A stretch of DNA of 64,000 nt. Source: Eucommia ulmoides (taxonomy: Eukaryota > Streptophyta > Magnoliopsida > Garryales > Eucommiaceae). A model generated the notes under the pieces. It was not told the origin of the DNA. It saw only the letters and a list, made by a program, of their open reading frames with translations, and did no database searches. Numbering within the stretch: position 1 is the stretch's first letter; every line of letters starts with the position of its first letter. Of the stretch, positions 9,623-55,798 are shown piece after piece. The stretch covers positions 12,904,880 to 12,968,879 of the forward strand of contig CM028336.1 of assembly GCA_016647705.1 (NCBI GenBank), given 5' to 3'. The position numbers and the translations under genes were made by a program.

Positions 9623-9624
9623 CT

Positions 9625-35337: not shown

Positions 35338-37100
35338 TGATAGGTGTGATCTACCTACATATTTTCAAACCGATTTTGTTAGTTTTAGAGTAGTTTTATA
35401 GTTATTTTTATATGTTTTAATATGTTTTTATTCATTTTGTATTAAAACAGGTGTGTGAGGTGAAAAGGTATGAAATCAGAGCATAAAAGATCAAATCATA
35501 TTGAGAACGGTGGAAAAATGATCAAGGCAGCAAGATTCTGCAAATAAGCCCACCGCCACGGCGTCTAAACCACCGTCGCGGCGGTGAAGATGCTGAGAAG
35601 ACCAAATGCTGCTGATACCCCACCGCCTAAACGGTGAACCAGCAGAATGTTTTCCACAGCCACCGCCTTATCTATCACCTCGGTGAACCTTAACCGACAT
35701 ACTCCACCGCCGTGGCGGTCAGCTCTACGCAGTGTTAGATATTTTGTTTATTTATACCTCTTTTCGCCCCTCTCTTTTGCTCTCTCCGACCATTATAGCC
35801 CTTAAGGATTATTTTAGGATATAGAGAGAATATGGGTAGTGCTCAAACATATCCGAAGGAGAAGATCAACACACAGAGACGGAAAATCATTCGGTGGACG
35901 ATTTTAGCGGCTAATCTTCGAATATTGGCTAAGTTCATCCATTTTTCCTTTTATTTCTTGTCGTTAATATATGTTTGAGTATGTTTATCCTAGTTTTAAT
36001 TGTATAAATGGCTATGGCCATAGGTTAAACATGGATTATGTATGAGATTAATATCGTTTATAAAAACATAGTTTTGGTTTAATTTTGTCTCTTTGATGAT
36101 TGTTTTTCAATGTTTGAGTCTATTTATCATATTTTTTGTTTATTATGCTTAGAATTATATATTGAGAATATGAGGTTTGACAAATCTTGGATTCGGATTA
36201 GAATAAACAAACGCCACGATCTAATAACCCAGTCGGGGTTAGGTTTGTAGACAATCAATGACGTTGGGGAAAGACTCATGTGACCTAGGGTCGTTAATAC
36301 GTTGAGGGATACTTATTTATTGACTTGAAGTCATGTATTCCCCCATCTTACACTCGGGAAAGGTGGCGGTGGAGTTTTAGAACTGAGATTGTTGATAGGG
36401 TAAACACAACGCATGAAATCAATGACGTTGGGGTGAGACTCACGTGACTTAGAGTTGTTAAGACATTGAGGGAGATAATCCAATCCGATCATTGTATAGT
36501 TATATTATTGAGTCTCGCACTAACACGTTTAAAGGATCTAGAATAGCGTTCACCATTATTGCATGTTGAAATTCTAGAACATTACATGCTATGTGCTACC
36601 GCCTGAACTCGATACTACTGGCGGTTGTTGAGGAAAAAATAAATAGGCTGTTAGAAGAATTTAAAACTCGCATGCTGTTATGTTTAGAATGTTTTTAGGT
36701 TGTTTGTTATTTAATTCAGTTTGTTATTTTTGTATTTTTTTCATTTTAGTGTGTGTGTTTGGCTCGAGGACTAGCCAAATTTTGAGTTTGGGGGTAGTAA
36801 ACTAAACTAAATCAAGCGCAATTAAGTAAATAGAGTTTATCCCTAGATAATCCATCCCATAACTATCTCGTATTAGTAATTAGTATAGTAAAATTAGTAT
36901 TTTAGTATTAGCATTAAATTAAATACCATTTTTGTTGCCTAGATAAAGTCGGGTTATGACAATCGCGGTACTCGATAGTAATGTCAACCAATCCCTGTGG
37001 ATACGATACCCGACCGAAAGGTCCATTATACTAAAACTTGATCCGTACGCTTGCGGTGAAAGTGGAAACACTTAATTAGCGGCTGTCATTAACCATACCA
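35338..37100 (+). mobile_element. Athila-type LTR B1 inserted in element T
   Basis: Starts TGATAGGTGTGATCTACC and carries the conserved end phrase CCAATCCCTGTGGATACGAT...CGTACGCTTGCGGTGAAAGT, which also occurs (reversed) in B2 and in both LTRs of D1. No internal region is attached, so it is probably a solo LTR. The right end is uncertain (37,095-37,104), and no clean target duplication was found. The region 36,180-36,480 contains a duplicated phrase, CAATGACGTTGGGG...GACTCA, about 180 bp apart. Confidence 0.7.
35549..35720. repeat. Palindrome cluster in B1, CCGCGG-type word
   Basis: Five words of the form CCACCGCC..GGCGGTGG occur here (for example CACCGTCGCGGCGGTG at about 35,570-35,586 and CCACCGCCGTGGCGGT near 35,704-35,719). 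It stands where the other Athila-type LTRs carry different words. Locally very GC-rich compared with its surroundings. Confidence 0.75.
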
Positions 37101-37199
37101 AGATAACCCTCGTGCTGAGCCGAGCCAACCTCTAGGAACCCGTGAAGAAGACGACGTAGAGGAGGCGATCGTCGATCAGCCCGATGCGGAGCAGTAGCC

Positions 37200-38190
37200 T
37201 CCCAACCACCACCCTATCATGATCATCTAACTTTGCTTTTTATTTCTTTTTCCTTTTTGTTCGGCCCAGCATATAGCGGGCTTGTATATCGCGAGCAACA
37301 ATCCTACTATTTTTTTGTAAATTTGACAATCTCATCTGAATATAATCTTTGTTTTGGTCGTTCTTCTCTTGTTCCTTTATTTTATTGGATGATTGATGAC
37401 AATTGTGTTTGGAAAATAAATTTTATTTTATTCTCACAAGTGGCCAAGATTTGCCGAGCTGGATTACTACTCTTGTGCCTGGTAATCTGAACACACCCTA
37501 CCCCCCAGTCGATCAGAAGAGCTTGTGTCGAGCGAGCTGTTGTGGTCGACTTTGTGGTGCCTGAGAGTTTTTCACCCTGATCGGTGGATGTGTTGTAGTT
37601 GTTCACTTTTCTCCCAGACGACCAAGGGAGCCCGTCCCAACCGAGCTTCCTTGGTGTCTTGCCGGATATGACATTGAGGTCAGTCGTCGTCGCCTAACAG
37701 GTGTCTTGTTTAGATTATAGGTCACCTTACCCCCCAAACAATCTGACCAGCTCGATTTTTTCGGGCTTACCGATCTTCTTCAGGCCGTGGCCTTTAGTTT
37801 TGTTTCATTCCTGTAGAATCCCCGAGGCTAGAGGGCCACCCCTTCCTGGGTTGATGGCTGAAGCATGGTACACCCAGCCTTTGGCACGGGGACTGCTCAG
37901 TTCTACCTTTACAGGGAGAGAGGCTTTAGGATGGCTCACCCCCGGCCTCTCGGTACTCAGAAGGCTACTATTTCCCGTCCTCGAATCTTTGGGATCGTTT
38001 TATCCCCGAAATGATCTATCGAGATCGATTTTTCTGAGCTTACCGATCTTCTTTAGGGTCCGATCCGTAGACGTGCTATTTTGCAAGAACTAGAAATTAA
38101 TTGAACCGAAAATGCTTATATTTTTATTGACTACAACCTTTTCCATTACAACTCTTGTGAGATCAAAATACCAAATATAGGACAAGTTTT
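37200..38190. other. Spacer of element T between antisense ORF and pol end
   Basis: GC-richer sequence without clear coding similarity. The phrase GCTTACCGATCTTCTT with flanks occurs twice, at about 37,766 and 38,036, about 270 bp apart, so part of the spacer is duplicated. Confidence 0.5.
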
Positions 38191-41100
38191 ATGGATTTCG
38201 GTCATCGGTTTGGTAGTAGCGTTTGAGTTGTTTAGCGTTCCAGGGGTGCCTGAGTGGTACCCCTTCTTCCGTTTCCAAGTTGTACGTGCTTGGTTGGGTT
38301 ATGCTAACTACACGATAGGGACCTTCCCATCTTGGAGCTAGCTTCCTAACATTTTGCTCCTTAGTAACTAGGGTGACCTTCCTTAGGACGAGGTCCCCAA
38401 TGTCAAAAAATTGAGGCTAGACGTGGGGATTATAGTACCGGGTCATCCTCTGCTTGTAGGCGGCCTGATGAATCTGAGCTCACTCTCTCTTTTCCTCAAG
38501 CAGATCGAGGTTCAGGGCCAGACCTGCCCTGTTCTTGGTTGGGTCAAATGGGCGGGCTGTATGGGGAGAGGGTTTTTTGACCTCCACGGGGATCATAGCT
38601 TCCAAACTGAATGTCATGGAAAAAGGCGTCTCATCGGTCGGTATCCAGGCTATAATGTGGTAAGCCCATAGCACAGGATAAAGGTCTTTCACTCATAACT
38701 CCATTGATTTGTCCAACCGGGTTTTCAGATTATGCAAGATAATCTGGTTGGTGACTTTAACTTATTCGTTGGCCTGGGGGTGGGTAGGGGAGGAGAATTT
38801 CGTCTTAATCCCCAGCCCGATACACAACTCGGCGAATAGGTTATTATCGAACTGCTTTATATTGTCGGAGACGATAGCCCTTGGTATGCCAAATTTATAA
38901 ATCATGCGTTTCCATACAAAGTCTCGAATCTATTGCTTGGTGCTCATTTCAAGTGGCTCGGGTTCAACCCACTTAGTGAAGTAGTCGATGGCGATGACCA
39001 AAAATTTCCTGTGTCCTGTCCCTAGGGAGAATAGGCCGAGGAGGTCGATTCCCCACTAGGTGAACGGCCACGAGCTGGACATCAGGACCAGCTCGGTCGG
39101 TGGGGTATGAGGGTATGCGGCAAATCGCTGGCACTTGTCACACTTTTCAAGAATTCTCCTGTGTCTTTCAGGATCTTCGGCTAGTAATACCCGTTCAGGA
39201 GCAACTTCTGAACTAAGGACCTGCGCCCCTAGTGATTTCTACAAATACCCTTGTGGACTTGCCTCATTACAAAGTTGGCCTATTGAGGTTGGAGAAACAG
39301 GGAATATGGTCCTGAGAAGGATTTTCGATACAGAATCCCGTCGATAAGGGTATACCGTACCGCTTGGTACTGTATTTTTCAAGAGTGAGCCTGATCACTG
39401 AGAAGCGTTCCATCAGTAAGATAGCTCACTGTGGGGTCCATCCAAACCAGCTCGGAATCTAGGGGCATATCATCGCGGGCTTGTTTGAGGAGGTTGTGCT
39501 CAAATCGGCGAGAAACTCGATGGGGACCGTCCTCTTGAGTGTGTATTCGATCGCAGAGGCTAGGTTAGCCAGGGCGTCGGTGTTCCTGTTCTCTTCTTGG
39601 GGTATTTATGTGACTTTTACCTTCTCAAAGAGCTTTGTCAGGTCTTTTACCCTCTCTAGGTAGGCCACCATGCTCGGGTCCTTTGCGAGGTAGTCACCGT
39701 TGACCTAGTTAACCACAAGCTGGGAATCACACATCACTAGAAGGGTTCTTACATTAAATTCTTAGGCCAAATACAGTCCAGATAACAATGCTTCATACTC
39801 GACCTCATTATTTGTAGCTCGAAATCCAAGCTTGAGGGCATACTTGATCTCTTCTTTATCTGGGGCCACGAGAACCATCCCGACACTCGAGCCACTCTGA
39901 TTGGAGGGTCCGTCAGTAAAGAGCTGCCACGAGTCGGGGCCAAAGTCTCCATGGGCTTCAGTCAGCTCGTACAAGGTTTTAGCCTGACCCGTGCTCTTAG
40001 ATGCTAGCTTTGATTCACCTAGATTAGGAATAGTCTCCTCCTCGGAGAAGGTCAGCTCGGCTACAAAGTCAGCCAGGACCTATCCCTTGATTTCCGTCTT
40101 GGGGTAATACTAAATATGGAATTAGCCTAGTTCCAGGCTATACTTCATTAACCTCTTCGAGATCTCAGGGGAGTGGAAAATCTGCCTCAACGGTTGGTCC
40201 GTCAACACCACAATGGTATGAGCTTGAAAATATTGTCATAGCTTCCTTGAGGTGATCAGCAAGGTGTAGGCCAATTTTTTGAATTTTGTGTACCATGTCT
40301 CGCCATCAGTTAGGACACGGCTTGAGTAATAGATCGGGCTCTGGACACCGGTGTCCTCCCTGACCAGGGCGGTACTAATGGCCGTCGGGGAGACCACGAT
40401 GTAAAGGAGAAGGTCTTCACCCTTCTAAGGTTTAGTGAGTAAGGGAGCCGATGAGAGATATATTTTCAGCTCTTCAAAGGCGCGATCATACTCCTCGGTC
40501 CATTCGAATGCCTTGTTACCCCGGAGGATTTTTTTGGATGACTTGGAGATAAACCGGTTTAGGACGACCAACCGAACTATTAGTATCTGAACCTCCTTCT
40601 TGTTCTGAGGAGGGGCCATGCCGAGCACTGTACTAATTTGGTCAGGGTTCGCGTCATTGCCGCCCTGGGAGACCATAAAGCCTAGGAATTTAATAGTGAA
40701 CAGGCCGAAGATACATTTGTTTGGATTCAACTTTATGCGGTGAGCTCGGAGCTTATCAAAGTAGGCCTGGATATGGTCGAGATAATCTTCAGCCCGGTAA
40801 CTTTTTATGAGCATATCGTTGATGTGCACCTCCATCGTGTTCCCGATTTCTTTCTTGAACATTTTATTGACAAGCCTCTGATAGGTCACCCTTGTGTTGC
40901 GGAGGCCAAATGGCATGACTTTGTAGCAGTAAGTGGAAAGAAATCTTTGGGAGAGACCTTGTTCAGATCCTTAAAGTCGAGCAAGCTGAGTCGCTCGTGC
41001 CCCGCCGTTGCGTCGATTACGATGTCAATCCTTGGAAGGGAAAAGAAATCGTTGGGATAGACCTTGTTCAGATCCTTAAAGTCGACACACAGTCGCCATT

Positions 41101-42170
41101 TATTGCTGGCCTTCGAGGCCAGCATGACGTTCGCGAGCCAGTCTAGAAATTTGACATTTTCTATGACGTCTGACCTAATGAGCTTATCCATCTCATTTTC
41201 TATTATCTTCTGCCGATCTGGATGAGACTTCATTCTTTTCTGACGAACAGGCGGATGGTGAACATCGACATGCAACTAGTGCATGGCAACACTTGGTTTG
41301 ATACCGAAAAGTTCATTGTGGAACCAGGCAAAAACATTGTGGTTATTCAACAATAGCTTGGTGAGGCTGGATTGTTCTTCTGGGCTTAGCCGAGCCCCAA
41401 TCCTCACCGTTCTTTCTGCGATAATGGGGTGAAAGGGGACGTCAACCAGATTTTTATGGGGTCGCGAGATGGGCTCGTCGTCACACAGATTGTTGATCGG
41501 AACGGGCTCAACCCCATCAGCGAGGACCACGAGCTCCCCGACCACCCGATGCGGGGAACACAGCCCGGGCCCCGACTATAATTGTTATTTTTTCTCCAAG
41601 GCCCTTTTTGCACAAGACCAGGCGGTTTCTTGGTTCTCCTGTACTTCTCAAACACTCGACCCTGTGGGGAATTTCATTTATTGGTGATACGAGGAACATA
41701 CGGCCTTCAGGGCGGTCACGGTGGGCCGACCTATGACCACGTTGTGTAGAGATGGCCTATCAACAATAACAAATTTGGACCAGACAGTGGCGACATCAGG
41801 GCTAGAGCCAACGGTGACGGGCAGAGAGACCTAGCTGACCGAACTAACCACATCGCCACCAAACCCGACGAGCGAGGATTTGACGAGCTGTACAGAGCTC
41901 AATTCTATACCCATTTTTTCGAATGCTCCTTTAAGGATAATATCTGTCAAGCTGCCCCCGTCGACGAGTATCCTCGCTCTCACGAAATGATTGATTAGGG
42001 ATGCAATGACCAGGGTGTCGTCATGCAGAACGTGCACCTCCATCAGGTCAGCCTCACTAAAGGAGATCACATTGTGGAAGGCTACATATATTGTGTTAAC
42101 CTCATAGACACCCTGTTCCGCTTTCCTCTTACTCTTGTCTTCGTACCTCTTCCGGGAATAAGACATTTCT
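38190..42170 (-). mobile_element. Tat-lineage pol region of element T
   Basis: Minus-strand landmarks, right to left: a protease segment with ILVDGGSLTDII (about 41,970); RT with WRLCVDFKDLNKVYP (about 41,080), MPFGLRN (about 40,910) and LNPNKCIFG (about 40,720); RNase H with SWQLFTDGPSN and NEVEYEALL (39,930-39,800); an integrase tail with TPFSMTFSLEAMIPVEV (about 38,610); and a pol end with LRHPWNAKQLKRYY (about 38,240). The order RT-RNase H-integrase is Ty3/gypsy. Fossil, many breaks. Confidence 0.9.
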
Positions 42171-42359
42171 CCTCCGAAACCCTGGCCGCTGTGGATGACA
42201 TTGATTTTACCTTCGACTCTCAGATTGGAGTCGTCCCCAGCTTGCTCACCATGGGGCGGAGCTTGGTTATCATTCCGCGTTCTACGCTATCCTCGGCGTC
42301 CATCACGACGATCATTTGATCCAAACCGATCTTCATCAGGTCGACGGATGTAATTTCTG

Positions 42360-42960
42360 ATTTAGCCTTTGCAGATAAAGGCTTCAATTTCTTCCTTCAG
42401 CTGGAAGCATTCGTCAGTGGCATGACCGTTGCTCCTGTGGAAGTCGCAGTACTTATCAATCAACTTTCTTAGGGTCTTCCCCGTATGGGGAGACGCGGGT
42501 GAGAAAATACCTTTTTCTGATGTTCTCGGCGAAGATGGTTGCAACGGATGCAGTCAGGGAAGTATAAACGACCTGACGATGACCCGAAGACGAGGCCTCC
42601 TATCATCGAGCAATGGCCCCAACCTTCCATTCGCTTCGAGTCTTCGAGAAGCTTGAGATCGGCTCGTACCCTCGTCGGCTCGGGACTTCTTTCTGAGAAG
42701 ATCTTCCTTCTCTTTTATAATCTTGTCGACGAGGTCGACCTTATAAAAATTGGCACCGAGGTCAAGTGCCTCACGTAGGCTGGAAGCTGGCTTGGAATTC
42801 AGGTCATACAAGAGTTGTCGGTGCCTTAGTCCGCCAATAAAGGCGTTGAGTGCTACCTCATCAGACACTCCCTCACACGCGAGGGACTTCATCCAAAATT
42901 GGTGCATGTAATCGGCCAGGTTCTCATTTTCCTCCTGCTTGACGCCAAGGAGGTGAGAGG
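42360..42960 (-). mobile_element. Tat-lineage gag, C-terminal part, of element T
   Basis: A minus-strand frame at 42,907-42,554 reads ACEGVSDEVALNAFIGGL and ...LREALDLGANF, typical of gypsy gag. A zinc-knuckle-like CDFHRSNGHATDECFQLKEE follows (about 42,450). Gag N-terminal parts continue weakly toward the junction with B2 at 43,377. Confidence 0.85.
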
Positions 42961-44420
42961 TGGTCTTTGGCCTATATCATGACCGGTGGGAGGTCGTTGA
43001 ACCATGACCTGGAAGGACCAGTTAGTCTGAGTGAAAAGAACTTACACCTTTTGGAGTTGGTGGCAGCGTGCACATCCATGTGGGAAACATACACGGAGAG
43101 ATGGTCCAACGGGTCAGTTGTCCTATCGTATTATACTACCGGGAGGTTGGGAAATTGATACGGAATTGTCTCTTCTGTGATTTTCGCAGTGAAGGGAGAT
43201 CAAATTCCAGTATAAAACCCGGGAGATCCCCCGGTGTTGCGCATTAGATTGAGGGTAACTTCTATTTCTGCCAGGCGTCATTCCATCGTGGTTGTCACCC
43301 TCTCTGGGGCGACAATATGACTGGCAGCCGGTCTGGGCTCCCTCCTACAAACTTGTGGCGGGGAGTGGGAATCCACTGGTAGGGCATAAAATACGTCGCT
43401 ACTTTCACTCGCAAGTATACAAGGTCAAGTTTTAGTATAGATCGGGAGAGTTAGGGTTATCGTGTCCACAGAGATTGGGTTTGACTATAATTGAATATCG
43501 CGTTTATCATGACCTAATTTTATCTAGGCGAAGATAAATTGAATAAAATTAATTATACTAATACTAAGTTAATTAATCTAATTAAATTAACTATACTAAT
43601 ATTATTATGAGATGTGTAGGGAAAGTATTGCCTAGGGATTAGCTTTTGTTTACCAAAACGTGTTCGGTCTCGTTTTAGTTTACATTAACAGCGTTGACTT
43701 ATCCGAAAATCTCAGTTCATAAATTCCCTCGCCACATCTCCCGAGTGTAAGACGTGGGACATAACGCGACTTCGTGTCAACGAAGAAGTCCCCCTCAACA
43801 TCTTAACGACCCTAGGTCGCGTGAGTCTTGCCCCAACGTCATTGATTGCACACAATCCAACTCCCGACTGGGTCATTGGATCGTTGTGTCGTGTTTACCC
43901 TATCGACAATCTTAGTTCTAAAACTCCACCGCCACCTCTCCCGAGTGTAAGACCCCATATTCTCAATATATCTAAACTAGCATATAATCATAGAAAACAC
44001 GGCAACACAATCGAAATTATAAGGAACAACCATCAACGAAACACAAATTCAACCAAAACTACATTTTCATAAATAATACATTAATCCCTAGAAAAAAAAT
44101 CCGTTTAGCTCATGTCCATAGACAATTATACAATTAAAACAAAGCTAAACATGCTCAACTAACTACTGAAGTTAAGAAATAAAAGAAGAAACGAAAGAAA
44201 CTTAGCCTAGTCCGTAGATTTGTCGCTAAAAATGCTTCAGGATTGCTTCTCCTTTATCGCAATGTGATCTTCTCCTTCAGAATTGGTTGAGCACTCCCAA
44301 AACCTCTCAAAATATCCCTCTCAAGTCTATGGAGGTCCCCTAGCCTAATGGAGAGGAGAGGAGGAGAAAACTAAGCTAAAAATATCCTAAAATATCTAAA
44401 ATATTATCTAAACTAGCGCA

Positions 44421-44500
44421 GAGGTTTTCGCCTAGGCGAAGTTACTGCAAGAAGGTTGGTTAACTTTCTGCCGGATTTCCGCCTAGGCGAAATTACTGTA
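44421..44500. repeat. Palindrome cluster in B2, CCTAGG-type word
   Basis: TTCGCCTAGGCGAA is a perfect 14-bp palindrome at 44,427-44,440 and recurs (CCGCCTAGGCGAA) at 44,479-44,491. Both are followed by an ATTACTG or GTTACTG phrase. A related CTCGCCTAGGATTTCGCC lies in the internal region at about 45,881. Confidence 0.75.
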
Positions 44501-44514
44501 GGTTTGCAATTTTG

Positions 44515-44640
44515 TTTTGACTGTAACTTCTTCATCTGAACTCTGATTGAGGTGATTCAAAAACCTATGGAAAGATAAGAAAAATATATACAATGTATAT
44601 GTTTTGAGTGTTTCCAAAATCGGATTTCATCATAGTCCAA
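44515..44640 (+). repeat. Conserved module M, copy 2 (in LTR B2)
   Basis: Reads CTCTGATTGAGGTGATTCAA, then CTATGGAAAGATAAG, then ATGTTTTGAGTGTTTCCAAA: the reverse of the copia J leader module. It begins within 25 bp of the palindrome cluster. Confidence 0.75.
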
Positions 44641-44860
44641 AATAGCCTTGAAGTTACAACACCTGTACCAGCTTTGCACATTTTCGCCCTTTTTCCGCCG
44701 TTCTTGATCCGATTTGATCGTTTTTGATCCCTTTACATACCTTTTCACCTCAAACACCTAATTTAGAAAAAAACACATAAAAACATATTAAAATGTACTA
44801 AACATACTTGAAAACTAACAACGTTCGGATTAGAAATAGATAGGTAATTTACACCTATCA

Positions 44861-44885
44861 AATACCCCAAACTCGGACTTTTGCT
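44861..44885 (-). other. Polypurine tract region of B2
   Basis: On the minus strand: CCGAGTTTGGGGTATT directly before the LTR start TGATAGG. The preceding GCTCGAGGACTAGCAAAAG is a phrase typical of Athila-type 3' ends. Confidence 0.7.
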
Positions 44886-46339
44886 AGTCCTCGAGCAAAA
44901 CACCCATGGAGTAAAAGAAAATATAACAACTAAAAATGAAAAATGAAAAACACGATAAACAAATATGTGCAAGTTTTGAGTATCATCTACCGGCCAAACG
45001 AAATATCCCTCATCGGCCCCCAATCCTATCAACTTCAGGCATAAAACACATCATGTAATGTTCTATAATTTCAACATTTATAATAGTAAATGTCGTTATA
45101 GATCCTGCTAAAGTGTGTATGTGTGTTTAAAAACTCAAATAGATAATTTTCCGTTAATCAGATTGGATTATCCACCATATAAGTGCATGACAGGAAAAAA
45201 AAAAAACCCCGAAGGTATAGGGAATCCATAGGCTTAACCCATGATCTATTCTCCACTAATGTAGGCTCGGAAGTTCAAGAAGATCAATAGGTCTTGGTTC
45301 GGTTTAGGACAAATGGCCAATTGTAAATTTGAAAAAGAAAACGGGTTAACGTCGTTCAATTGACGTTACCCAAGGCACATCGCTTGGCACTCTCTCACTC
45401 TCGAAACCCCATACATATAATTGAACCAACCCTGAACATAATTTTAAGAACTTTGTACTCACTTGTAAAAAATAAACAGAAAATAAAAATCATATGTACA
45501 TTTGATTTTTTTTATTTTTTTTAAAAAAAAATACACCCCCAAATTTATTTGATTTGTAAAATTTAAGGGGTATGTGAAATATGAAAAAAAAAATGACAAG
45601 TGAGTACTCGAATACCTAACCAATTAATAGTTCGCCAAAAACGCAACTGCTCACTTCAAGTAGCATAATGAATGCTAACTTGATTCTCTCAAATTGTGCC
45701 TTTGGTTTAGCGATTTAGGTTTGGAAAGAAATTTAATCGGTCACGTGGTATTGGTTAAGTGTTCAGAATTGAAATGGCTATTAGGTTTCGACAGGGTAAC
45801 GAGGGGTAATGATTTAACAAGGTTGGCTTAAAAAGGATCAAGCGAGAAAATAAATGCCTAAATCGTGTCTTCCAAACTACCTCGCCTAGGATTTCGCCTC
45901 GAATTTCCCCCAAGTCAAGTTTTAGAAACCCTAATATCATGAATTTAGGTGACAGATAATCGTTTTCAAATCAATTAGACAGTTATATAATACGTTTTCA
46001 TGCTCATGCAAGTAGGATTTATAATAACTATTACTAAAACATAACGTTGAGCACACAGAACATACATGCATGAGTTTTACACTTGACCTCAATAAACAAC
46101 CAGGGGACAGACTCATCATTGGGTAATGGCCCAAATGACGTCAAAACTCAGCACATAACACAACAACTATCCTAAACAGACATGCACATGTAAAAACAAT
46201 AAAACATACTAAATAAAACATATACTAAAAACATACTACACATCACATCCGACTCAAACAGGAAATGCCCATAATAACCTAGTCAGCGATCCCAATGACA
46301 TGATAAAGCATTATAATATAGACTAGGGTTTAGAACACA

Positions 46340-46707
46340 TAACTAGGAGGCGAGAGACTCTCGCCTCCGAATCAAATCGGTTATGATGGATCTAACTTAT
46401 TCTTTTCCTTGGGTTGCCTCCCAAGAAGCGCTTATTTTATGGTCATCAGCCTGACATGCCGAAGTGCTCGTCCAAGAGCTGCTTCCGTTCGTAGCAAGTG
46501 TCGTACAACACCACATACGGGTCTTGGTTCAGTACGCCCTCAAGACTGGCGAGATGTGGCAATGTATAGCTCAAGCTTTCAACGACATGCCTAATCGGCT
46601 CATGTACTTATTGGGCATGAAAGAACGTTGCTAGTGGCGGGGAAGGATCATTGAGCCACATCAGATCCTCATAAATATGATCGTCTTGGATCGAGTGCGG
46701 CATCAAC
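46340..46707 (-). mobile_element. Partner of the D1 conserved ORF in element B2
   Basis: The minus strand encodes VLNQDPYVVLYDT and nearby residues matching the D1 ORF at 53,273-53,542, at the equivalent position in the internal region. Broken copy. The product is not known to me. Confidence 0.6.
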
Positions 46708-46976
46708 AACTATTAGATGATTTTTTTAATAATATCCCCACACTCACTAACCAAGGCCACTGAAATTTTCTTTAATCTAATGGGAATAGAACCTTAGAGG
46801 TATCAATACATATTTATAGAGAAAACCCCAAAGAATATGTTTGTTCCAATGGGTGTACTGAATAGACGTGATTCTTGAGAGTAAGAAGTGCACCCATTCA
46901 CATGGTGACTATCTATGTAACATGGGGCTCATGTGGATGCTCCATGAGTTGACTCGACCCGCTCCATAATCCAACA
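46708..46976 (-). repeat. Copia LTR E2, partial, opposite strand to E1
   Basis: On the minus strand it starts TGTTGGATTATGGAGCGGGT and follows E1 through the TCTATAAATATG TATA box (absent in E1) and the GGCCTTGGTTAGTGAGTGT block. The last part of E1 is lacking, so this is truncated at the B2 junction. Confidence 0.7.
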
Positions 46977-47919
46977 TTAACATATCAAATCATTATAGAG
47001 CTTAATTCAATTAAATTTTAATTTTACGAATTTTAATTTTACAAATTTCCATTTAACCTAATTAATTACCATAATGCACGGATTATTTGTAAATTATATT
47101 GATTTTTTATAATTCTTATATTTTCATTCATTAGTAAATTAAATATTAAAATTTAATTAATAAAAAATTTATAACAAAAAATCGATGAAAACCTCGAATA
47201 ATTTGATTATTGAACGAATCAAGTTGAACATAAAGTTTCAATCTCGCCGCGAATTCAAATATTTAAAGAAAAAAAAAAAACGAATCAAATTGGACGTTTA
47301 ATGTATACCAATAGAATCTTGAGAAACAGTGCAACACTTGATCTCCCAAAACATAGAATAATGTTCGGAATCATTTTTTATTTAATTAACGAAACCCAGA
47401 TCAAAATGATTTAATGCAGAGAATAGCGAAATTAACTCTCCTTGAACTACAAAACCAAAATATTGGGTCCCTTCATAAAAATCAACATGCAAAAGAAATG
47501 ATTACTCAATATGAAAATCAAATAGCCCCTGTGCCGTAAACTTTACACCAAAAATTTAAAATAAATGATCATTCTATCAAACTTGAACACGAAATTACAT
47601 AAATATCAAATAATTTCAAACCTGAAAACAAAAAAATGATGCCCCACAAAGGAGACATCATACAATAGAAATTGGAAATAGAAAACAAAATTGAATTGAA
47701 CAATCATGAAACAAACCATTACTTTTTAATATTGAGCATCCAATATGTTTGTTTAGTCTTTTGTTCCATAAATCTGTTTTAAGAATAGAAACAAAATATG
47801 GGAACAAAAAACAAAAGTTTTCAACATAAATTTATGGGGCAAAACACAATTGATCCCAAATTTCATAATTCCGTGAAACAGAATCCGAGTTTGAAAACAA
47901 AAATATTAAACAAAGATCA
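46977..47919. other. AT-rich stretch, nothing recognised
   Basis: AT-rich intergenic sequence between LTR E2 and element C. It has A-rich runs but no coding similarity and no clear terminal repeats. Confidence 0.5.
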
Positions 47920-48101
47920 TGATGTTGCAAGATTTCGTTAGTAGTAAGCTTTCTCCCAATCTGTATAACCCCTGCAACACTTGAGATTAGCATTTGGGAG
48001 ACCGGTGTGATATCGGCTAAATACTTGCCGGTGTGAGAATAAGTTAAACATATCTAGTAGAGAAAAAGCTTATGTGTGTCCCCTTTGGCCTGAATGACAT
48101 A

Positions 48102-48132
<31 letters not shown>

Positions 48133-48388
48133 CGTACCTGATTTCTCAAATCTTTCATCATGATCATAACTGTCTCAACATTCATGTACAAGATTTTGCC
48201 TGAGAGTGTATCTATCATTGGTCTCATGTGCTGAGCTGAGCTCATATTGACTTATGATTATTCGTATTAGCTCATAATCCAGGCCCACTTGAGCATAGCC
48301 TATTGGATATTGGTGAGTTTTATACGATCCAACCCACATCTGCCTGTTTAATACGTGCAATACTTTGTGGGTAAAATCACCTGTATCA
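47920..48388 (-). repeat. 3' LTR of element C
   Basis: Plus-strand ends TGATGTTGCAAG and CACCTGTATCA. It aligns with the two parts of the 5' LTR over shared blocks such as GTGTGTCCCCTTTGGCCT and CTATTGGATATTGGTG. It contains a TA microsatellite at 48,107-48,132. Confidence 0.8.
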
Positions 48389-48705
48389 TTTGCCCCATTT
48401 GAAATGAGTTCAACAAGAGCTGATTTCAACTATGTTTCTCACCATTTTGTACATTAGCACTTTTTGTAATATATCGTGCATTTTTACATTTTGTTGCTGA
48501 GGTTTCCTTTTGGGTGTAAAGATTCTGACCTCGTTGTCCTTTGTCGCTAAATATATTCGAGCCTTTGAAATAACTTCTTCCTCAATTTTTTACTTTGCAT
48601 TTTTCAATAGTTTAGGCAAAACTAACCTTCCTCAAAGCATCTTTATTAGCGTTGTTTATTACTCGCTTCTGGTTGTTATGTCTCCTCAACTCGAGTCCAT
48701 TTCTT

Positions 48706-49190
48706 GATGACCTCGAACTCAATTCTGGCATTGAGATGAGTTTGACGGAATTTAGCTTTTTGAGCTGACTTCGAACTCATTCCTTGATAACACATAGAGT
48801 TTAATGGAGGTTAGCTTCTTGAGCTGACCTTGAACTCATTGCTAGTGTTGAGCTATGTTTGATGGAGGTTGTCTTCTTTAACTGACCTCGAACTCATTCC
48901 TTCATGACTCCTAGACTTTAATGGATGTTAGCTTCTTGAGCTGACCTCAAGCTCATTGTTGGCCTTAAGCTGAGTTTGATGGAGGTTAGATTATTAAGCT
49001 AACCTCGAACTCATTGTTGGTATTAAGCTAATTTTGATAGAGGTTAGCTTCTTGAGCTAACCTCGACCTTATTCCTTGATGACACCTAGAGTTTAATAGA
49101 GGTTAACTTCTTGAGCCGACCTCAAACTCATTGCTAATGTTGAGTTGAGTTTGATATAGGGTAGCTTCAAGAGCTGATATTGAACTCATT
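48706..49190. repeat. 59-bp tandem repeat array, about 8 units, in the 3' region of element C
   Basis: Units of 58-60 bp share GAGGTTAGCTTCTTGAGCTG followed by ACCTCGAACTCATT. Two forms alternate: one continues CCTTGATGACACCTAGAG, the other TTGAGCTGAGTTTGATGG. The real period is therefore near 118 bp. The array lies a few hundred bases inside the 3' LTR. Confidence 0.85.
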
Positions 49191-49352
49191 TCTCAGCTTG
49201 TTGATGATGTCCGAGAATTATAGTTTATAGCATGCTCATTCCTTAGCTTGTCCTTAGGCATTGAGTTCGTTATTGAACTTAGCCTTCTGGAAAATCCCTA
49301 TTCAGTTTCATTCTTTTAAAACACAAGGCTAATTTGCAAATAACAAACTTTA

Positions 49353-49730
49353 TTTATAGCTTTCGATAATATATTTTAGCAATAAAATTAAAAATAATTT
49401 TAAACAAAATGTTTTCTTTGCTAAATCCTATGTTGATTTTCTTTTGGATGGTTGATCTCTTCTCATATTTCTAGATCTTTCTGATCATCCCTTTGTTCAT
49501 GGGGTTTGATTGAGACACATAGCACTTTAACCTGCTTTATTTATAGCTTTCGATAATAGATTTTAGCAATAAAATTAAAAATAATTTTAAACAAAATGTT
49601 TTATTTGTTGAATCCTTTGTTGATTTTCTTCTGGATGGCTGATCTCTTCTCATCTTTCTATATCTTTCTGATCATCCCTTTGTTCATGGGGTTTGATTGG
49701 GACACATAGCACTTTAACCTGCTTTATAAA
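49353..49730. repeat. 187-bp direct tandem duplication
   Basis: TTTATAGCTTTCGATAATA starts at 49,353 and again at 49,540; the two units end with CACTTTAACCTGCTTTAT. They differ at only about ten positions by eye, so this duplication is much younger than element C. Confidence 0.9.
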
Positions 49731-50848
49731 AGCTGCAGTTTCTTGTATGTCTAATAATAATCATTTTCCATAAATAAGATGATATGCAGAAAAACTAATG
49801 CACTTTTGGAAATAATACAAATTTCATATTTCACATAATATTCAGGTCATGCGCCATAATGGGTTTTCACCTTTAAAATTCTATTTTTATCAAATAGGCA
49901 TACTCTTGAATCAAATATTTGGTTATTATTCATGCAAATCTATATTTTAAAATAAATTGTTGTAGTTTAGTTGATAAAAGTATTTCCTGAGACAATGTGC
50001 GTTTTACGATCTTAAGACTTTTATTTATTTTTAGATCTTTAATGTCTGAATTTATTATCTACCCAATCAAAAATAACAAAGGTGAACTGTATATTGGTAG
50101 CAAAATTATTCGTCGTTACTTTTACCGCAAGTGTACGAGTCAAGTTTTAATAGAATAGTGATGAGTAGGGTTGTCGTATCCACAAGGATTGGATTAAATT
50201 ATCGTTAAGTACCGTAATTATTGTAACTGAACTTTATCTAGGCAATAGAATTTTTAGGGTTTTTGTTATAAGATAAGCTAAACTAAAATTATAACTAATT
50301 AAAATACAATACTAATATTGACGTTTATGGGAATAGATTATGTAGAGATTAACTTCATTCACTTAAACGTGTTTGAATTAGTCTAGTTTACATTAATGGT
50401 ATTCAAACTATCCAACAATTTAGGTATCGAAAACTCACTCACTACCTCTCCCAAATATAAAGTGAATGAATATGCAATTTGTGTCAACACCGATATCCTT
50501 ATCTAGCGTCTAAATGATTACATGAGTCTTGCCCTAATCTCACGGATTGCACACTTTCTGATAATCTCCTGAAACATTAGAATGTCGCGTTGAGTTTAAA
50601 CCGTAGTCCGAATTCGAGGTTACCTCTCTCGAGTGTAAAACCCCGTATTCTAAAATCAACCAATATATCATAACAAGCATATAATGGAAGTAAAAAAAAA
50701 TGATAAATACAATCGAATAGCGATGAACAACCAATAAAAACGTAGATTTATTCAAACAACATACTTTATAAACTACATTAATCCCTAAATAATATATGTT
50801 TAGCTCATGACCATAACCACATATTCAACTAAAAATGAGATAAACATG

Positions 50849-50888
<40 letters not shown>

Positions 50889-51148
50889 ACTTAGAATGAA
50901 AGAGAGAAATAAGAGAGAATAGTCGTTATCTGAAGAATAGACGGTTCCACGTCCGTAACATCTGCTCCGGTCTTGTTTCCTCTTCTCCAATTTGTGTTCT
51001 CCTCAAGCTTGGTATGATCTTGGAGCTCCAAAATACTCCCAAAAACATTCCCCAAAACATTCATAGGGTGTTGGGAATGAGGGGATATCAAGACAAATCC
51101 AAAATATCTCAAAACTATCCCAAAATATCTTTGTCAGGTGGTGCGGGG

Positions 51149-51284
51149 TCGCTACAGCGATGGGGGGAATTATTGTAGCGATCAAAGGGAAGTACCTTAC
51201 TACCAGATCACTACTACAATGATGGTAACTATCACTGCAACGATTCCATCACTACAACGGTGGAAATGGTCGCTGCAGCGATGG
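51149..51284. repeat. Palindrome cluster in the D1 3' LTR, CTGCAG-type word
   Basis: TCGCTACAGCGA at 51,149-51,160 and the perfect palindrome TCGCTGCAGCGA at 51,270-51,281, with several decayed forms between them. Both D1 LTRs carry the same word, as expected from copying at insertion. Confidence 0.8.
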
Positions 51285-51299
51285 TTAAGGCTATGCCAA

Positions 51300-51430
51300 C
51301 ATTAGGTTCTTCTTTTGCTATAAATTTCTTGTCCAAACTCTGATTGAGGAGGTTCAAAAACCTATGGAAATATAAGACAGAGATATACAAATTCTATGTT
51401 TTGAGTTTTCCCAAAATCGAATTTCATTAT
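51300..51430 (+). repeat. Conserved module M, copy 3 (D1 3' LTR)
   Basis: CTCTGATTGAGGAGGTTCAA, CTATGGAAATATAAG, TATGTTTTGAGTTTTCCCAA in the same order as copies 2 and 4, adjoining the palindrome cluster. Confidence 0.75.
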
Positions 51431-51605
51431 ATTCAAAATTGGCCTTGAAATTAGTGCACCTGTACCGAATTTGCATCTTTTCACCCATTTATTCAAAAAC
51501 CTATAAAACAATACAAAAACACATTAAACTAACAAAAGATCTTGAAAACAAACAAATATTTGAATCTAAAAGTACTTGATTTGTTGGTAAATAAACCACT
51601 CATCA

Positions 51606-51625
51606 AATACCCTCAAACTCAAACG
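51606..51625 (-). other. Polypurine tract region of D1
   Basis: The minus strand reads CGTTTGAGTTTGAGGGTATT before the LTR start TGATGAGTGG. GAGGACAAGCAAACG just upstream is the usual Athila-type context. Confidence 0.75.
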
Positions 51626-53272
51626 TTTGCTTGTCCTCAAGCAAAAACAAAAGAAAATAAAGAAAACAAACTACTACAACAAAATAACGAACACAACTAT
51701 TAAAAAAGAAAGGACAAACGAACTAAAAATAACGACGTGTGAGTTTTGAATTTCAACTAAACAATCAAAAAGCTTTCCCTCAACGGCCCCCAATTATATC
51801 GAGTTCAAGAATAAAATTGCACCATGTGGTGTTCTAAAATTTTAACATTCAATAATAGTAAAAGCCATTCTAGATCTTTTCCATGTATGTGTGCGAAAAC
51901 TCCATTATACAACCATCCAAAGGCCGGATTGGATTATCTACCAATAAAATTCATGACTTAAACCAATAAGTCATAGGATTTCCATAAACCAATTGGGTTC
52001 CACTCTCCACTAATGTTGGTTAAGTAATTCAAAAAGATAAAAAATACTTGGATCAGTTTTTATCAACTAGCCAAAGGTATATCGGGAATAGGTAAACGTT
52101 ATTAACTCGACGTTACCTAAGGCACATGCTTGGCATTCAATCACTATCAAACCCCGAAAGATCAATTCGAAATAACCCTGAACTATCGTTTAAAAATGTC
52201 GTACTCACTTGTCAAAAGAAACTAAAATAGAACTATATTTACATATGGTGCTTTTTTTTTTTTTTTTTTTAAAATACCACACTCCTAAACTTATTTGATT
52301 TGAACAATTTCATGGGTGTGGGAATACAAAAGAAAAATGACAAGTGAGTACTCGAATACCAAACCAATTAGAAGTTCACCCAAAACCCAACCGCTCACTT
52401 CATGTAGCATTTACAAATGCTAGCTTAATTTTGACTCAAATTGTGCCTTAATTTTTAGTGACAAAGACCTGGAAAAAGTTTCATTGGCCAGGATATTTGT
52501 TACATGATCAAAATTGAAACGGATTACAGGCTTCAACAGGGTAACGAGGGATAAAACATATAGCATGGCAGATTTCAAAGGCTTAAGCGATCAAATTGAA
52601 TGCCTAAATTATGTCTCCTGAACTACCTCGCCTAGGATTTCGCCTTAAGTTTCCCCCAATCAGGTTTTAGAATCCCTAACATTGTCATGAACTTGCTACT
52701 GAATAATCAGCCTCAAATCAATTAGATAGCTAGTATATTGAGTCTACGTGCTCATGCAAATTAGGATCTATAATAACTTTTACCAAAACGAAATGTCAAG
52801 CACACAGAATACACATGAATGGGTATTACCCTAGACCTCGAAAAATAATTAGAGGATAATATCATCATTGGGTAATTGCCCGGAAGAACTACAAAACTCA
52901 GCACACAATTACTACTTCATACATAAACACATTTATACTAATACTAAACACAAACATGCATACATTACACTAAATATCTACAACACAGCAACATACTAGT
53001 AAACATGCATGAACAACAACTACATTTTAACTTAAACTAATAACTAACAAAAAGATATCTTACTATAAAGCATACAAAACATCCCCCCCAAACTCAGAAC
53101 GGGTACTGTCCACAGTGACCCAACATCCAACTCAACAAATAGCATGCATTATAGTGACGAAGAGGGTTTTCAATACATACCTGGGAGGCGAGACAATCTC
53201 ACCTCCGAGTGTAGTTGGTGGTGATGAATTGATTTATTTAAAAACTTGGGTTTCCTCCCAAGAAGCAATTGT

Positions 53273-53542
53273 TTAATGTCCTTGGCTTGACACGGAGAAG
53301 GGCTCATCAAAGAGCAGTTTTCGCCCATAGTATGTGTCATACAACACAACATACGGGTCTTGGTTCAGAACGTCCTCAAGCTTGGCGAAATATGGCTTTG
53401 TTCGGCACGTACTCTCAACGTGACTCGGCATTGGCTCATGTGCTTGGTGGGCTTGAATGAACGATACTGCAAATGGGAGAGGACGGGTGAGCCACATCGG
53501 ATCCTCGTAAATGTGATCATTTTGGATCAGTGATGGCATCAA
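53273..53542 (-). mobile_element. Open frame of unknown function in D1, conserved in B2
   Basis: The minus strand gives an 89-residue frame with IQNDHIYEDPMWL, a central LEDVLNQDPYVVLYDTYYG and a RKLLFDE segment. The equivalent place in B2 preserves VLNQDPYVVLYDT and other residues, so this was coding sequence in the family. I do not recognise the domain; it may be a part of gag or a linker to it. Confidence 0.55.
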
Positions 53543-53869
53543 GTTCTTCCCGCTCGTATCTGGTTCCTCCTAGTGGATTTCACATATGGATGTGACTTGT
53601 GTATCTTTTAGTGCTACTACTTCTGACCTGACCTCAATAAAGCAAATAAGCTGACTGATTTGAGTCCCAAGAGACTTTACGGTTACATTAATTTTAGCGC
53701 AGGTCATCTCAATATTGTCAAGAGGATCCTCATGCTCATTGAGACGATCATTCGTTTTCTCTAGAAAGCCTGAGTCTCCGCCATAAATTCAGCGAACATC
53801 TCTTCCTGGATAGGAGAAGACTCCACATGTTGGTCTTGTGTATTAATCCATGGCTCCGAAACGGTGGTA

Positions 53870-54140
53870 CTATCCCCCAAGTTTTGGTAGCTTGTTGAAT
53901 AATCTAACTCTGAAAATCAAATTCTATCATATCATCCAACAACCAATAGGCTTCATCCGCGGTTAGTTGGTTAAAAGAGGTGATACCATTTCCTCCTTCC
54001 ACCCAAGTTCTTGTTACGGCTAGTAACCCATCGAGGAATTTCAATAGTCGACACTCCCTCGGGAAACAATGATTTGGGAACTGAATGAGAAACTCCTTGT
54101 ATCCATCCCAAGCACAATAAAATAGCTCGGAATCTCGTTA
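53870..54140 (-). mobile_element. Athila-type gag-like fragment of D1
   Basis: The minus strand includes EFLIQFPNHCFPRECRLLKF and, further on, FNQLTADEAYWLLDDM, resembling the Athila gag pattern FPHHG......L..F..GL...T.......GG.F....DEA..LL..L. It lies soon after the primer site, where gag is expected. Broken. Confidence 0.6.
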
Positions 54141-54282
54141 AAAAAATACAATAGCACTTGTTGATGACACATCTTTAAGTACCTCGCAAGATAAACAAAA
54201 CTGAAAACAAAAATTAAAAATAAAATAAATGCCTAAAATAAAATCAAATCACTTACAATATCAACAATAATCTAAAAGCCAA

Positions 54283-54300
54283 TCCTCGGCAATGGCGCCA
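54283..54300 (-). other. Primer-binding site, Athila type (tRNA-Asp-like)
   Basis: The minus strand reads TGGCGCCATTGCCGAGGA six bases inside the 5' LTR. The usual Athila site is TGGCGCCGTTGCCGGGGA, complementary to tRNA-Asp by my recollection; two positions differ. Confidence 0.75.
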
Positions 54301-55335
54301 AAAACTTGGTAGCAGAATTATTCATCGCTACTTTTATCGAAGTGTACGGGTCAAGTTTTAATAGAATAGTGATGAGTAGAGTTTTCGTATCCACATAGAT
54401 TGGATTAAATTATCATTAAATACCGCAATTATCGTAACCGAACTTTATCTAGGCGATAGAATTTTTAGGGTTTTTGTTATAAGATAAACTAAACTAAAAT
54501 TATAACTAATTAAACTACAATACTAATAAATACATTTATGGGAAAAGATTATCTAGAGATTAACTTCGTTCACTTAAACGTGTTTGAATTAGTCTAGTTT
54601 ACATTAATAGTAATCAAACTATCCGACAATCTAGGTATCGAAAACTCACTCACTATCTCTCTCGAGTGTATAGTGAATGAATATGAAATACACTCAACAC
54701 CGATATTCCTATCTAGTGTCTAAATGATTACATGAGTCTCGCCCCAACGTCATGGATTGCACACTTTCTAATAATCTCCCGAAACATTAGAACGTAGTGT
54801 TATGTTTAAACCCTAGTTCGAATCTGGGGTTACTTCTCCCGAGTGTCAAACCCTGTATTCTCAAATCAACCAATATATCATAACAAGCATATAATTGAAA
54901 TAGAAGAACGGTAAACACAATCGAATACCGATGAACAATCGATAACAAAACGTAGATTTATTCAAACAACATACTTTGTAAACTACATTAATCCCTGAAT
55001 AATATATGTTTAGCTCATGGTCATAACCACATATTCAACTAAACATGAGATAAACATGATCAAACAATAAGAAAGGCTTAGAATGAAAGAGAGAAACAAG
55101 AGAGAATAGCTGTTATCTGAAGAATGGACGGTTCCACGTCCGCAAAATCCGCTTCGGTCTTGTTTCCTCTTCTCCAATTTGTGTTCTCCTCAAGCTTGGT
55201 CTAATCTTAGAGCTCCAAAATACTCCCAAAAAGGTTCCCAAAAACGTTCATAGGGTATTGGGAATGATGGAATATCAAGACAAATCCAAAATATCTAAAA
55301 AATATCCCAAAATATCTTTACCAAGTGGTGTCGGG

Positions 55336-55470
55336 TCGCTACAGCGATGGGGGGCATTGCTGCAGTGATCAAAGGGCAGTAACTTACTGCCGAATCATTA
55401 CTACAACAATGGGAACCATCCTACAGCGATGCCATCGCTGCAGCGGTGGACATTGTCGCTATAGCATGGC
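55336..55470. repeat. Palindrome cluster in the D1 5' LTR, CTGCAG-type word
   Basis: TCGCTACAGCGA at 55,336-55,347 and further forms up to GTCGCTATAGCATGG. Same word set as the partner LTR. Confidence 0.8.
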
Positions 55471-55494
55471 CAAGGTAGTACCGACACCAGATTT

Positions 55495-55620: not shown

Positions 55621-55798
55621 AAAAAATTAGCCTTGAAGTTACTATACCTGTACCAAATTTGCATCTTTTCACCCATTTATTAAAAAAATTATAAAACAAT
55701 ACAAAAATACATTAAATTAACAAAAGTACTTGAAAACACACAAATATTTGAATCTTAAAGTACTTGATTTGTTGGTAAATAAACCACTCATCATATAT

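What the first reader, a model, noticed from the sequence alone, without database searches (positions are those of the whole stretch)
35549..55470. Exchangeable palindrome words at one fixed site in Athila-type LTRs
Three insertions of one LTR family (B1; B2; D1 with two LTRs) share start, end and body sequence, but at the same internal position each carries a cluster of a different perfect palindrome: CCGCGG-centred in B1 (35,549-35,720), TTCGCCTAGGCGAA in B2 (44,421-44,500), TCGCTGCAGCGA in D1 (51,149-51,284 and 55,336-55,470). The two LTRs of D1 agree, so the word is inherited at transposition but replaced between lineages while flanks persist. Point mutation does not easily turn one palindrome into another across a whole cluster, so replacement, template switching or selection for self-complementarity is implied. 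One inference is that the words form hairpins or loop-loop contacts between RNA copies, where self-complementarity matters more than the exact word, as in retroviral RNA dimer initiation sites. A protein-binding or silencing role is also possible.
Basis: partly seen in the sequence, partly recalled or inferred. Interest (0 to 1): 0.88.

Follow-up and report, generated by a model that had tools for sequence, protein, structure and literature searches.

The report
Phased palindrome arrays in plant retrotransposons
In one plant genome, related retrotransposons carry, at one site in front of their promoter, rows of short mirror-image DNA words that are swapped for different mirror-image words from lineage to lineage and mostly stand whole turns of the DNA helix apart, which points to docking sites for a paired DNA-binding protein rather than to an RNA device.

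Summary
Athila-like LTRs in this plant genome carry usually 2-6 short inverted repeats between a conserved ~130-bp block and the promoter. The word differs by lineage: ACCGCC(GC or TA)GGCGGT, TTCGCCTAGGCGAA, ATCGCTGCAGCGAT, ACCGCTGCAGCGGT and rarer ones. In a word-blind sample 39 of 40 block copies have recognisable words. Four exact words occur 518-3,269 times genome-wide, reversed controls 0-1 times. The common form is CGC-N4-GCG. New: outside the copia set, 210 of 249 neighbouring spacings lie within 1.5 bp of whole helical turns (29% expected), as do 32 of 35 TATA-like boxes. That fits sites for a dimeric DNA-binding protein in the U3 promoter and speaks against RNA kissing loops. The same block sits beside arrays of another, W-box-like palindrome in the leader of a Ty1/copia element; those are not phased. 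Replacement is whole-cluster in the word-blind sample but slot by slot in B1-like LTRs. Closest known: palindromic RM boxes upstream of the TATA box in Sirevirus LTRs. A new variant of a known kind; the binding protein is unknown.

The parts
35338..36490 (+). B1 LTR head (rearranged Athila-like copy; LTR tail continues at about 36797-37063 after a stretch of internal sequence)
   Evidence: alignment, self-BLAST, boundary
35549..35720 (+). B1 palindrome cluster, class ACCGCC(GC/TA)GGCGGT, mostly decayed; best words 35572-35585 and 35706-35719
35749..35756 (+). TATA-like box (TATTTATA) downstream of the B1 cluster
   Evidence: 23 of 30 B1-like copies have a TATA-like box within 150 bp of the last word
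43377..44860 (-). B2 LTR (3' LTR; polypurine tract begins at 44861)
44425..44493 (-). B2 cluster: TTCGCCTAGGCGAA (44427-44440) and TTCGCCTAGGCGGA with core 44480-44489
44510..44698 (-). conserved block upstream of the B2 cluster
   Evidence: profile hit E 1e-63, (the stretch was part of the profile); BLAST to D1 E 3e-39
50095..55793 (-). D1 element, complete insertion with TSD TATAT (50090-50094 and 55794-55798); LTRs 50095-51605 and 54307-55793; PBS-like TGGCGCCATTGCCGAGGA at 54283-54300
51149..51284 (-). D1 cluster, 3' LTR: ATCGCTGCAGCGAT-type words
55336..55470 (-). D1 cluster, 5' LTR, same word type
51279..51495 (-). conserved block, D1 3' LTR
55466..55682 (-). conserved block, D1 5' LTR
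9114..9313 (+). the same conserved block inside the leader of a Ty1/copia element, antisense to that element
   Evidence: profile hit E 2.8e-49, (the stretch was part of the profile); independent BLAST to D1 E 4e-27
8700..9360 (.). array of ATCGGTCGACCGAT / GGTTGACC words around the copia-leader block
3005..10110 (-). host Ty1/copia element of that array: 5' LTR 9629-10110, PBS about 9618 (recalled motif), leader, gag-like frame about 8062-7376 (not scanned for domains), pol pieces 7234-4088, 3' LTR 3005-3478
   Evidence: Pfam SH3_retrovirus and Pol_BBD in two of the pol pieces

Best explanation
The clusters are arrays of binding sites for a dimeric sequence-specific DNA-binding protein in the U3 promoter of Athila-like LTRs. 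Each palindrome is one site: two inverted CGC(Y) half-sites with a 4-bp spacer. The sites lie roughly 40-250 bp upstream of the TATA-like box, on one face of the helix, in phase with each other and with the box, as cooperative binding with the core machinery would need. Lineages exchange the outer and central bases, and so perhaps the protein or its paralogue, while keeping dyad symmetry because a homodimer needs it. Words inside one array are kept alike by copying between slots or by recombination between elements. Shown: location, symmetry, strict half-site spacing, phasing, inheritance by lineage, exchange at homologous slots. Inferred: that a protein binds, that it is a dimer, that it activates rather than represses, and the copying mechanism.
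For: Position: 39 of 40 word-blind block copies carry words downstream of the block. TATA-like box within 150 bp after the last word in 23 of 30 B1-like copies (control windows of 150 bp upstream 0, further downstream 8) and 12 of 39 word-blind copies (controls 5 and 0; these loci are short), median 42 and 46 bp; 32 of these 35 distances are within 1.5 bp of a multiple of 10.5. Phasing (108 loci, all but the copia set): 210 of 249 adjacent spacings within 1.5 bp of a multiple of 10.5 (29% expected); best period 10.4 bp; 33 lineage-spacing pairs seen at least twice give R 0.76, never reached in 20,000 jitters; every distinct integer once, regardless of lineage, gives a weaker R 0.41; without the word list R 0.61, best period 10.3; of 96 spacings that are not near multiples of 21, 62 sit at odd multiples of 10.5, so copying a 2-turn unit is not enough. 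16 of 19 close pairs of exact palindromic words that I read from the capped listings agree; with the five close pairs of one-sided words it is 19 of 24 (counted by hand). Half-site: CGC-N4-GCG 119 times, against 0 for N0, N2, N3, N5, N8, 2 for N6, 1 for N7; 47 for N1, which I put down to CGCGGCG inside CCGCGGCGG. Symmetry: around CCTAGG cores 54 of 183 four-base arms are fully complementary, shuffled mean 25.9, maximum 40. Centre exchange GC to TA takes two transversions: 2,134 GC and 3,269 TA words against 624 one-sided, where 2,907 are expected if the two bases were independent; same at single homologous slots. Orientation and position: block plus palindromes also occur in a copia leader in reverse orientation, where GGTTGACC outnumbers its complement 49 to 5 in 20 loci, matching the WRKY W-box TTGACC (recalled).
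Against: No protein, ChIP, DAP-seq, methylation or expression data. B2-like (0 of 30) and D1-like (0 of 8) copies have no TATA-like box by my pattern. The copia-leader arrays are not phased (R 0.26-0.28). Arm covariation is absent for CCGCGG (3 of 23 vs 3.5 shuffled) and CTGCAG (1 of 82 vs 1.2; many of these are not words) and unclear for GTCGAC (9 of 55 vs 4.2, maximum 12). The two-sided change TTCTCCTAGGAGAA (36) is 3.7 times its expectation but far rarer than the one-sided form (319). TCGGCCTAGGCGGA, common in B2-like LTRs, is not a perfect palindrome (6 of 7 pairs). Shared ancestry makes spacings non-independent. The word list was made after looking at the sequences.
Confidence: 0.62

Rival explanations
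1. The palindromes act in RNA: hairpins or loop-loop contacts between genomic RNAs, as in retroviral dimer initiation sites.
For: Words are self-complementary and repeated, so copies can pair with each other in a folded transcript (70 of 85 word centres paired in predicted folds). In the copia element the array lies in the 5' leader, where dimer signals usually are (recalled). The block alignment folds slightly better than column shuffles on both strands, though the energies are small (sense -1.45, shuffled minimum -1.01; antisense -4.52, shuffled minimum -1.25 kcal/mol).
Against: In Athila-like LTRs with a TATA-like box the words lie upstream of it, so they would be at the 3' end of the RNA only. 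Helical phasing with each other and with the box has no meaning in RNA. Own-hairpin folds in 10 of 85 words. C>T: G>A near 1:1 (50:44, 31:31, 26:22) although RNA would tolerate C>T through G-U pairs; the copia words give 84:41, which I ascribe to the W-box-like centre.
Confidence: 0.06
2. The words are primarily silencing hot spots: inverted repeats that form hairpin RNA, small RNAs and dense CpG methylation.
For: Palindrome clusters in maize Sirevirus LTRs are small-RNA hot spots (passages of PMC5311732 and PMC10760457). C>T and G>A make up 94 of 163, 62 of 95, 48 of 65 and 125 of 238 differences in the four word classes tallied, and the D1 LTR pair differs more inside the cluster (27 of 137) than outside (165 of 1,343).
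Against: Silencing would be a cost to the element and does not explain maintained symmetry, strict 4-bp half-site spacing or phasing. It can be a consequence of the same sequences.
Confidence: 0.14
3. No function: a tandem duplication of a short GC-rich palindrome spread within LTRs by slippage and gene conversion.
For: Many spacings are 20-21 or 42 bp, as expected of a copied unit; B1-like clusters are mosaics with frequent slot exchange.
Against: 62 of 96 spacings that are not near multiples of 21 still fall on odd helical multiples; different palindromes recur at the same site in many lineages; one-sided centres are depleted 4.7-fold.
Confidence: 0.08
4. The 10.5-bp periodicity reflects rotational positioning of a nucleosome rather than protein sites.
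For: Periods near 10.4 bp also mark nucleosomal DNA (recalled); a nucleosome-binding LTR motif is proposed for wheat RLG_Quinta (passages of PMC11302176).
Against: Nucleosome signals need no palindrome and no strict CGC-N4-GCG half-sites.
Confidence: 0.06

Closest known systems
Sirevirus RM boxes (Bousios et al. 2010, PMC2829016; abstract, section 9 and passages read)
   Same: Repeated palindromes in the LTR, upstream of a TATA box, different palindromic words in different elements, a shared short core (CGG-CCG there), many copies; a regulatory role proposed but untested.
   Different: Sireviruses are Ty1/copia and the authors call the motif Sirevirus-specific among the Ty1/copia elements they compared. 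Here the carriers are Athila-like LTRs and the leader of a copia element; the core is CGC-N4-GCG in the former, these arrays are helically phased, a conserved block adjoins them, and word exchange is shown inside one genome at homologous slots.
[quoted passage not shown] 2016; not held; known here only through passages of PMC5311732 and PMC10760457)
   Same: Variable palindrome clusters in an LTR regulatory region, tied to host small RNAs.
   Different: No small-RNA data here; different superfamily and words.
VANC anti-silencing targets in VANDAL transposons (Hosaka et al. 2017, PMC5735166, abstract and passages; PMC10398659, abstract only)
   Same: Arrays of short motifs in non-coding parts of a transposon that change together between related families.
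   Different: VANC motifs are arrayed in one orientation and are not described as palindromes; the binding protein is known and element-encoded. No such protein was looked for here.
Motif shared between RLG_Quinta (Gypsy) and RLC_Gisela (Copia) LTRs in einkorn (PMC11302176, passages)
   Same: A non-coding segment shared across the two LTR-retrotransposon superfamilies.
   Different: There a 162-bp motif proposed to bind a nucleosome; no palindrome array is mentioned in the passages seen.

Membership tests
Sirevirus RM boxes | Carrier is a Sirevirus (Ty1/copia) | tested here: inconclusive
   No retrotransposon domain in 5 open pieces from D1, the B2 side and the B1 side (one weak DUF16 match below its cut-off); PBS-like and polypurine tract fit Athila by recall. 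The copia carrier at 3005-10110 was not tested for Sirevirus features.
Sirevirus RM boxes | Palindromic repeated motif in the LTR upstream of a TATA box | tested here: met
   TATA-like box in 23 of 30 B1-like, 12 of 39 word-blind, 0 of 30 B2-like, 0 of 8 D1-like copies
Sirevirus RM boxes | CGG-CCG core signature (12 of their 13 elements) | tested here: not met
   Core is CGC-N4-GCG in the Athila-like words; the copia-leader word CGGTCGACCG does have CGG-CCG and equals the word listed for their Vitis element
Sirevirus RM boxes | At least eight copies per element | tested here: inconclusive
   0-6 words per LTR in the word-blind set; internal regions were not searched; copia-leader loci average 11.4
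Athila lineage of Ty3/gypsy | Athila PBS next to the 5' LTR | tested here: inconclusive
   TGGCGCCATTGCCGAGGA at 54283-54300, 0 expected by chance; that this is the Athila/tRNA-Asp-type PBS is recalled
Athila lineage of Ty3/gypsy | Athila gag/pol or ATHILA ORF | tested here: inconclusive
   No such Pfam match in 5 open pieces of D1 and the B2 and B1 sides; D1 has only short open pieces
Retroviral dimer initiation site | Palindrome exposed in the loop of a hairpin in the 5' leader of the RNA | tested here: not met
   Athila-like words upstream of the TATA-like box where one was found; 10 of 85 words fold as own hairpin. In the copia carrier the position is in the leader; its fold was not tested.
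VANC-type anti-silencing system | Element-encoded protein that binds the motifs | not tested
   No search for such a protein in intact relatives was made

The most novel reading that the evidence does not exclude
A conserved block plus an array of exchangeable palindromes is a mobile cis-module of plant retrotransposons, shared across Ty3/gypsy-type LTRs and Ty1/copia leaders. Lineages swap the palindrome as a specificity code for a matching dimeric regulator (host paralogue or element-encoded, as VANC proteins do with VANDAL motifs), so that each lineage is addressed separately by activators or escapes a word-specific repressor.
Probability: 0.25. Interest if true: 0.85.

Novelty: new variant of a known kind. 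Interest (0 to 1): 0.64.

Why it matters
What regulates abundant plant retrotransposons, and how lineages in one genome keep separate regulation, is largely open. Here more than a thousand copies (1,353 exact block cores) hold natural variants of one promoter region in which mainly the site word is exchanged. That makes the question directly testable with existing DAP-seq data and simple reporters, and the helical phasing says what to test: a dimer on one face of the DNA.

Tried and rejected
Single-LTR shuffles are too weak for B2 and D1-right; replaced by genome-wide counts. Core-anchored arm test fails for CTGCAG, because AAACCTGCAGTAAC next to the words is not a word. RNA fold of the block: energies are small on both strands, though below those of column-shuffled alignments (sense -1.45, antisense -4.52 kcal/mol); not followed. 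Rfam: no match at gathering score. One LTR against the plasmid collection and one exact block pattern against viral contigs: no match. Six block and word strings appear in no held paper. Searches for a print report of such arrays outside Sireviruses; I saw the listings and abstract starts only, and none names one. Copia-leader phasing was tested and not found. Whole-cluster replacement as a universal rule was rejected for B1-like LTRs: last slot CGCG 11, CTAG 10 of 28 found (2 of 30 not found), at least 5 changes among 21 copies on the body tree, and label clustering little better than shuffled (122 and 76 of 500 shuffles as low).
Full report
What is there. The window is plant DNA (by its elements; 946.7-Mb assembly). 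The three LTRs of the finding are related over their length but far apart: B1-B2 71% over 611 bp, B2-D1 66-67% over about 790 bp. D1 is a complete insertion, 50095-55793, flanked by TATAT, with LTRs 50095-51605 and 54307-55793 that are 85% identical. B2 is a 3' LTR, 43377-44860. B1 is rearranged: LTR head, then internal sequence next to the polypurine tract, then LTR tail. 'Athila-like' rests on the PBS-like TGGCGCCATTGCCGAGGA, the polypurine tract and recall; no retrotransposon domain was found in five open pieces of D1 and the B2 and B1 sides.

The site. Reading in element direction, B2 and D1 have a conserved block of about 130 bp (no profile hit in B1), then the palindromes, then an AT-rich stretch with, in many copies, a TATA-like box.

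Genome-wide sampling. Four searches of the own genome gave D1-like (8 loci cut of 40 hits), B2-like (30 of 40), B1-like (30 of 40) and copia-leader copies (20 of 41 hits fetched). To avoid choosing by word, I searched the block core alone: 1,353 exact matches, none for the reversed control, and fetched 40 well-separated ones, all from the first 18.4 Mb of one contig. In 39 of these 40 a word with at least 11 of 14 letters of a listed type follows the block (L111 has none, two loci have one); the list was made after reading them, which is a bias. 29 of 40 have two or more words with at least 12 of 14 letters, and in all 29 the centre type is the same within the cluster, against 12.6 on average (maximum 20) when words are dealt out at random.

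The words. Lineages carry ACCGCCGCGGCGGT, ACCGCCTAGGCGGT, TTCGCCTAGGCGAA, TCGGCCTAGGCGGA (6 of 7 pairs only), ATCGCTGCAGCGAT, ACCGCTGCAGCGGT, and rarer GCGC- and CTCG-ended forms. Exact sites in the genome: 2,134, 3,269 and 2,644 for the first three, 518 for ATCGCTGCAGCGAT; the same letters reversed, also palindromes, give 1, 1, 0 and 0; the others were not counted. The common form is CGC-N4-GCG: 119 cases in the 108 clusters outside the copia set, 0 at spacers 0, 2, 3, 5 and 8, 2 at 6, 1 at 7; spacer 1 gives 47, which I put down to CGCGGCG inside CCGCGGCGG.

Exchange. On a tree of the block (98 copies, words left out) word classes need 12 changes, the least possible is 7, and 0 of 200 shuffles are as low; most inner branches are weak (4 of 95 strongly supported). 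Exchange at homologous slots is clearest in B1-like LTRs: in the last slot, found in 28 of 30, the centre is CGCG in 11 and CTAG in 10; of the other seven, one is the one-sided form CGAG, five fit C>T or G>A decay of CGCG, and one is AGCG. Genome-wide the one-sided centre has 624 sites where 2,907 are expected if the two centre bases were independent. These B1-like clusters are mosaics, and the last-slot state changes at least five times among 21 copies on the body tree, hardly better clustered than shuffled labels. So replacement is whole-cluster in the word-blind lineages and slot-wise in this one. Not all results favour symmetry: TTCTCCTAGGAGAA has 36 sites (9.6 expected) but its one-sided form 319; arms around CCGCGG and CTGCAG cores do not covary, GTCGAC is unclear.

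Phasing. Neighbouring words in the 108 loci outside the copia set are mostly 20-21, 32, 40-42, 49-53, 62, 72 or 83-85 bp apart: 210 of 249 within 1.5 bp of a multiple of 10.5, where 29% is expected; best period 10.4 bp. Counting each spacing seen at least twice once per lineage (33 pairs) gives R 0.76, never reached in 20,000 jittered sets; counting every integer once gives R 0.41. A search for dyads without any word list gives R 0.61 and best period 10.3. Close pairs of exact palindromic words read from capped listings elsewhere in the genome give 16 of 19 in phase; adding the five close pairs of one-sided words, 19 of 24 by hand. The TATA-like box follows the last word at 41-43 or 50-51 bp in 30 of 35 cases, 32 of 35 in phase. 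It was found in 23 of 30 B1-like, 12 of 39 word-blind, 0 of 30 B2-like and 0 of 8 D1-like copies; 150-bp control windows upstream and downstream gave 0 and 8 (B1-like) and 5 and 0 (word-blind, short loci). Multiples of 21 alone could come from copying a unit; the 62 of 96 other spacings at odd multiples could not.

The block is shared with another superfamily. The same block lies at 9114-9313 in the window, E 4e-27 to D1 by BLAST, inside the 1.5-kb leader between PBS and the gag-like frame of a Ty1/copia element (pol domains), in reverse orientation, among words of ATCGGTCGACCGAT type. The 20 fetched relatives show block and array with a downstream flank like the window's leader; that each lies in a copia element was not checked. 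L071 and L079 have the block doubled and ATCAGTCGACTGAT words, and L069 has fewer words (by eye). There GGTTGACC outnumbers GGTCAACC 49 to 5, which fits the WRKY W-box (recalled) and not a strict palindrome, and the spacing is not helical.

How it most likely works. Upstream position, dyad symmetry with fixed half-site spacing, helical phasing with the box, and use in both orientations in two kinds of element point to DNA-level binding sites for a dimer in the promoter. The RNA dimer idea is disfavoured by position, phasing, folds and the even C>T to G>A ratio in three of four word classes. Silencing by small RNA is plausible as a consequence, as in maize Sireviruses; words decay somewhat faster than the rest of the LTR in D1, 27 of 137 against 165 of 1,343. 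Which protein binds is unknown.

Comparison. Sirevirus RM boxes are the nearest kind: palindromic, repeated, upstream of the TATA box, with different words in different elements. Core, block and phasing differ, and probably superfamily, so I file the Athila-like arrays as a new variant of that kind, not as a member. The copia-leader word CGGTCGACCG, in contrast, equals the word listed for the Vitis Sirevirus, but it sits in a leader, and whether its carrier is a Sirevirus was not tested. VANC targets show that transposons can change arrayed motifs together with a binding protein; no such protein was looked for here.

Noticed in passing
window 3005-10110: Ty1/copia element with a 1.5-kb leader that ends in an intron-like polypyrimidine-CAG stretch (about 8062-8080, minus strand) just before the gag-like frame; the array and block lie inside it.
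   Followed up: partly
L071, L079: Copia-leader-type copies with the conserved block in two tandem copies and an AGTCGACT-centred word instead of GGTCGACC.
   Followed up: partly
window 8945-8978: The copia-leader word contains CGGTCGACCG, the same ten letters that Bousios et al. list for a Vitis Sirevirus RM.
   Followed up: no
window 35338-37063: B1 looks like a recombinant of LTR head, polypurine-tract-proximal internal sequence and LTR tail, without the usual LTR start after the tract.
   Followed up: no
L096: A block copy with TCGGTTGACCGA-type words that groups outside the copia-leader clade, a possible second origin or transfer of that word.
   Followed up: no
window 25987-26516, 48708-49116, 49341-49714: Tandem repeats of about 107, 117 and 187 bp.
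   Followed up: no
D1 clusters, between words: A further palindrome GGCAGTAA-G-TTACTGCC sits in the gap between words in the D1 5' LTR and, changed, as GGCAGAAAGTTAAC in B2-like LTRs.
   Followed up: no
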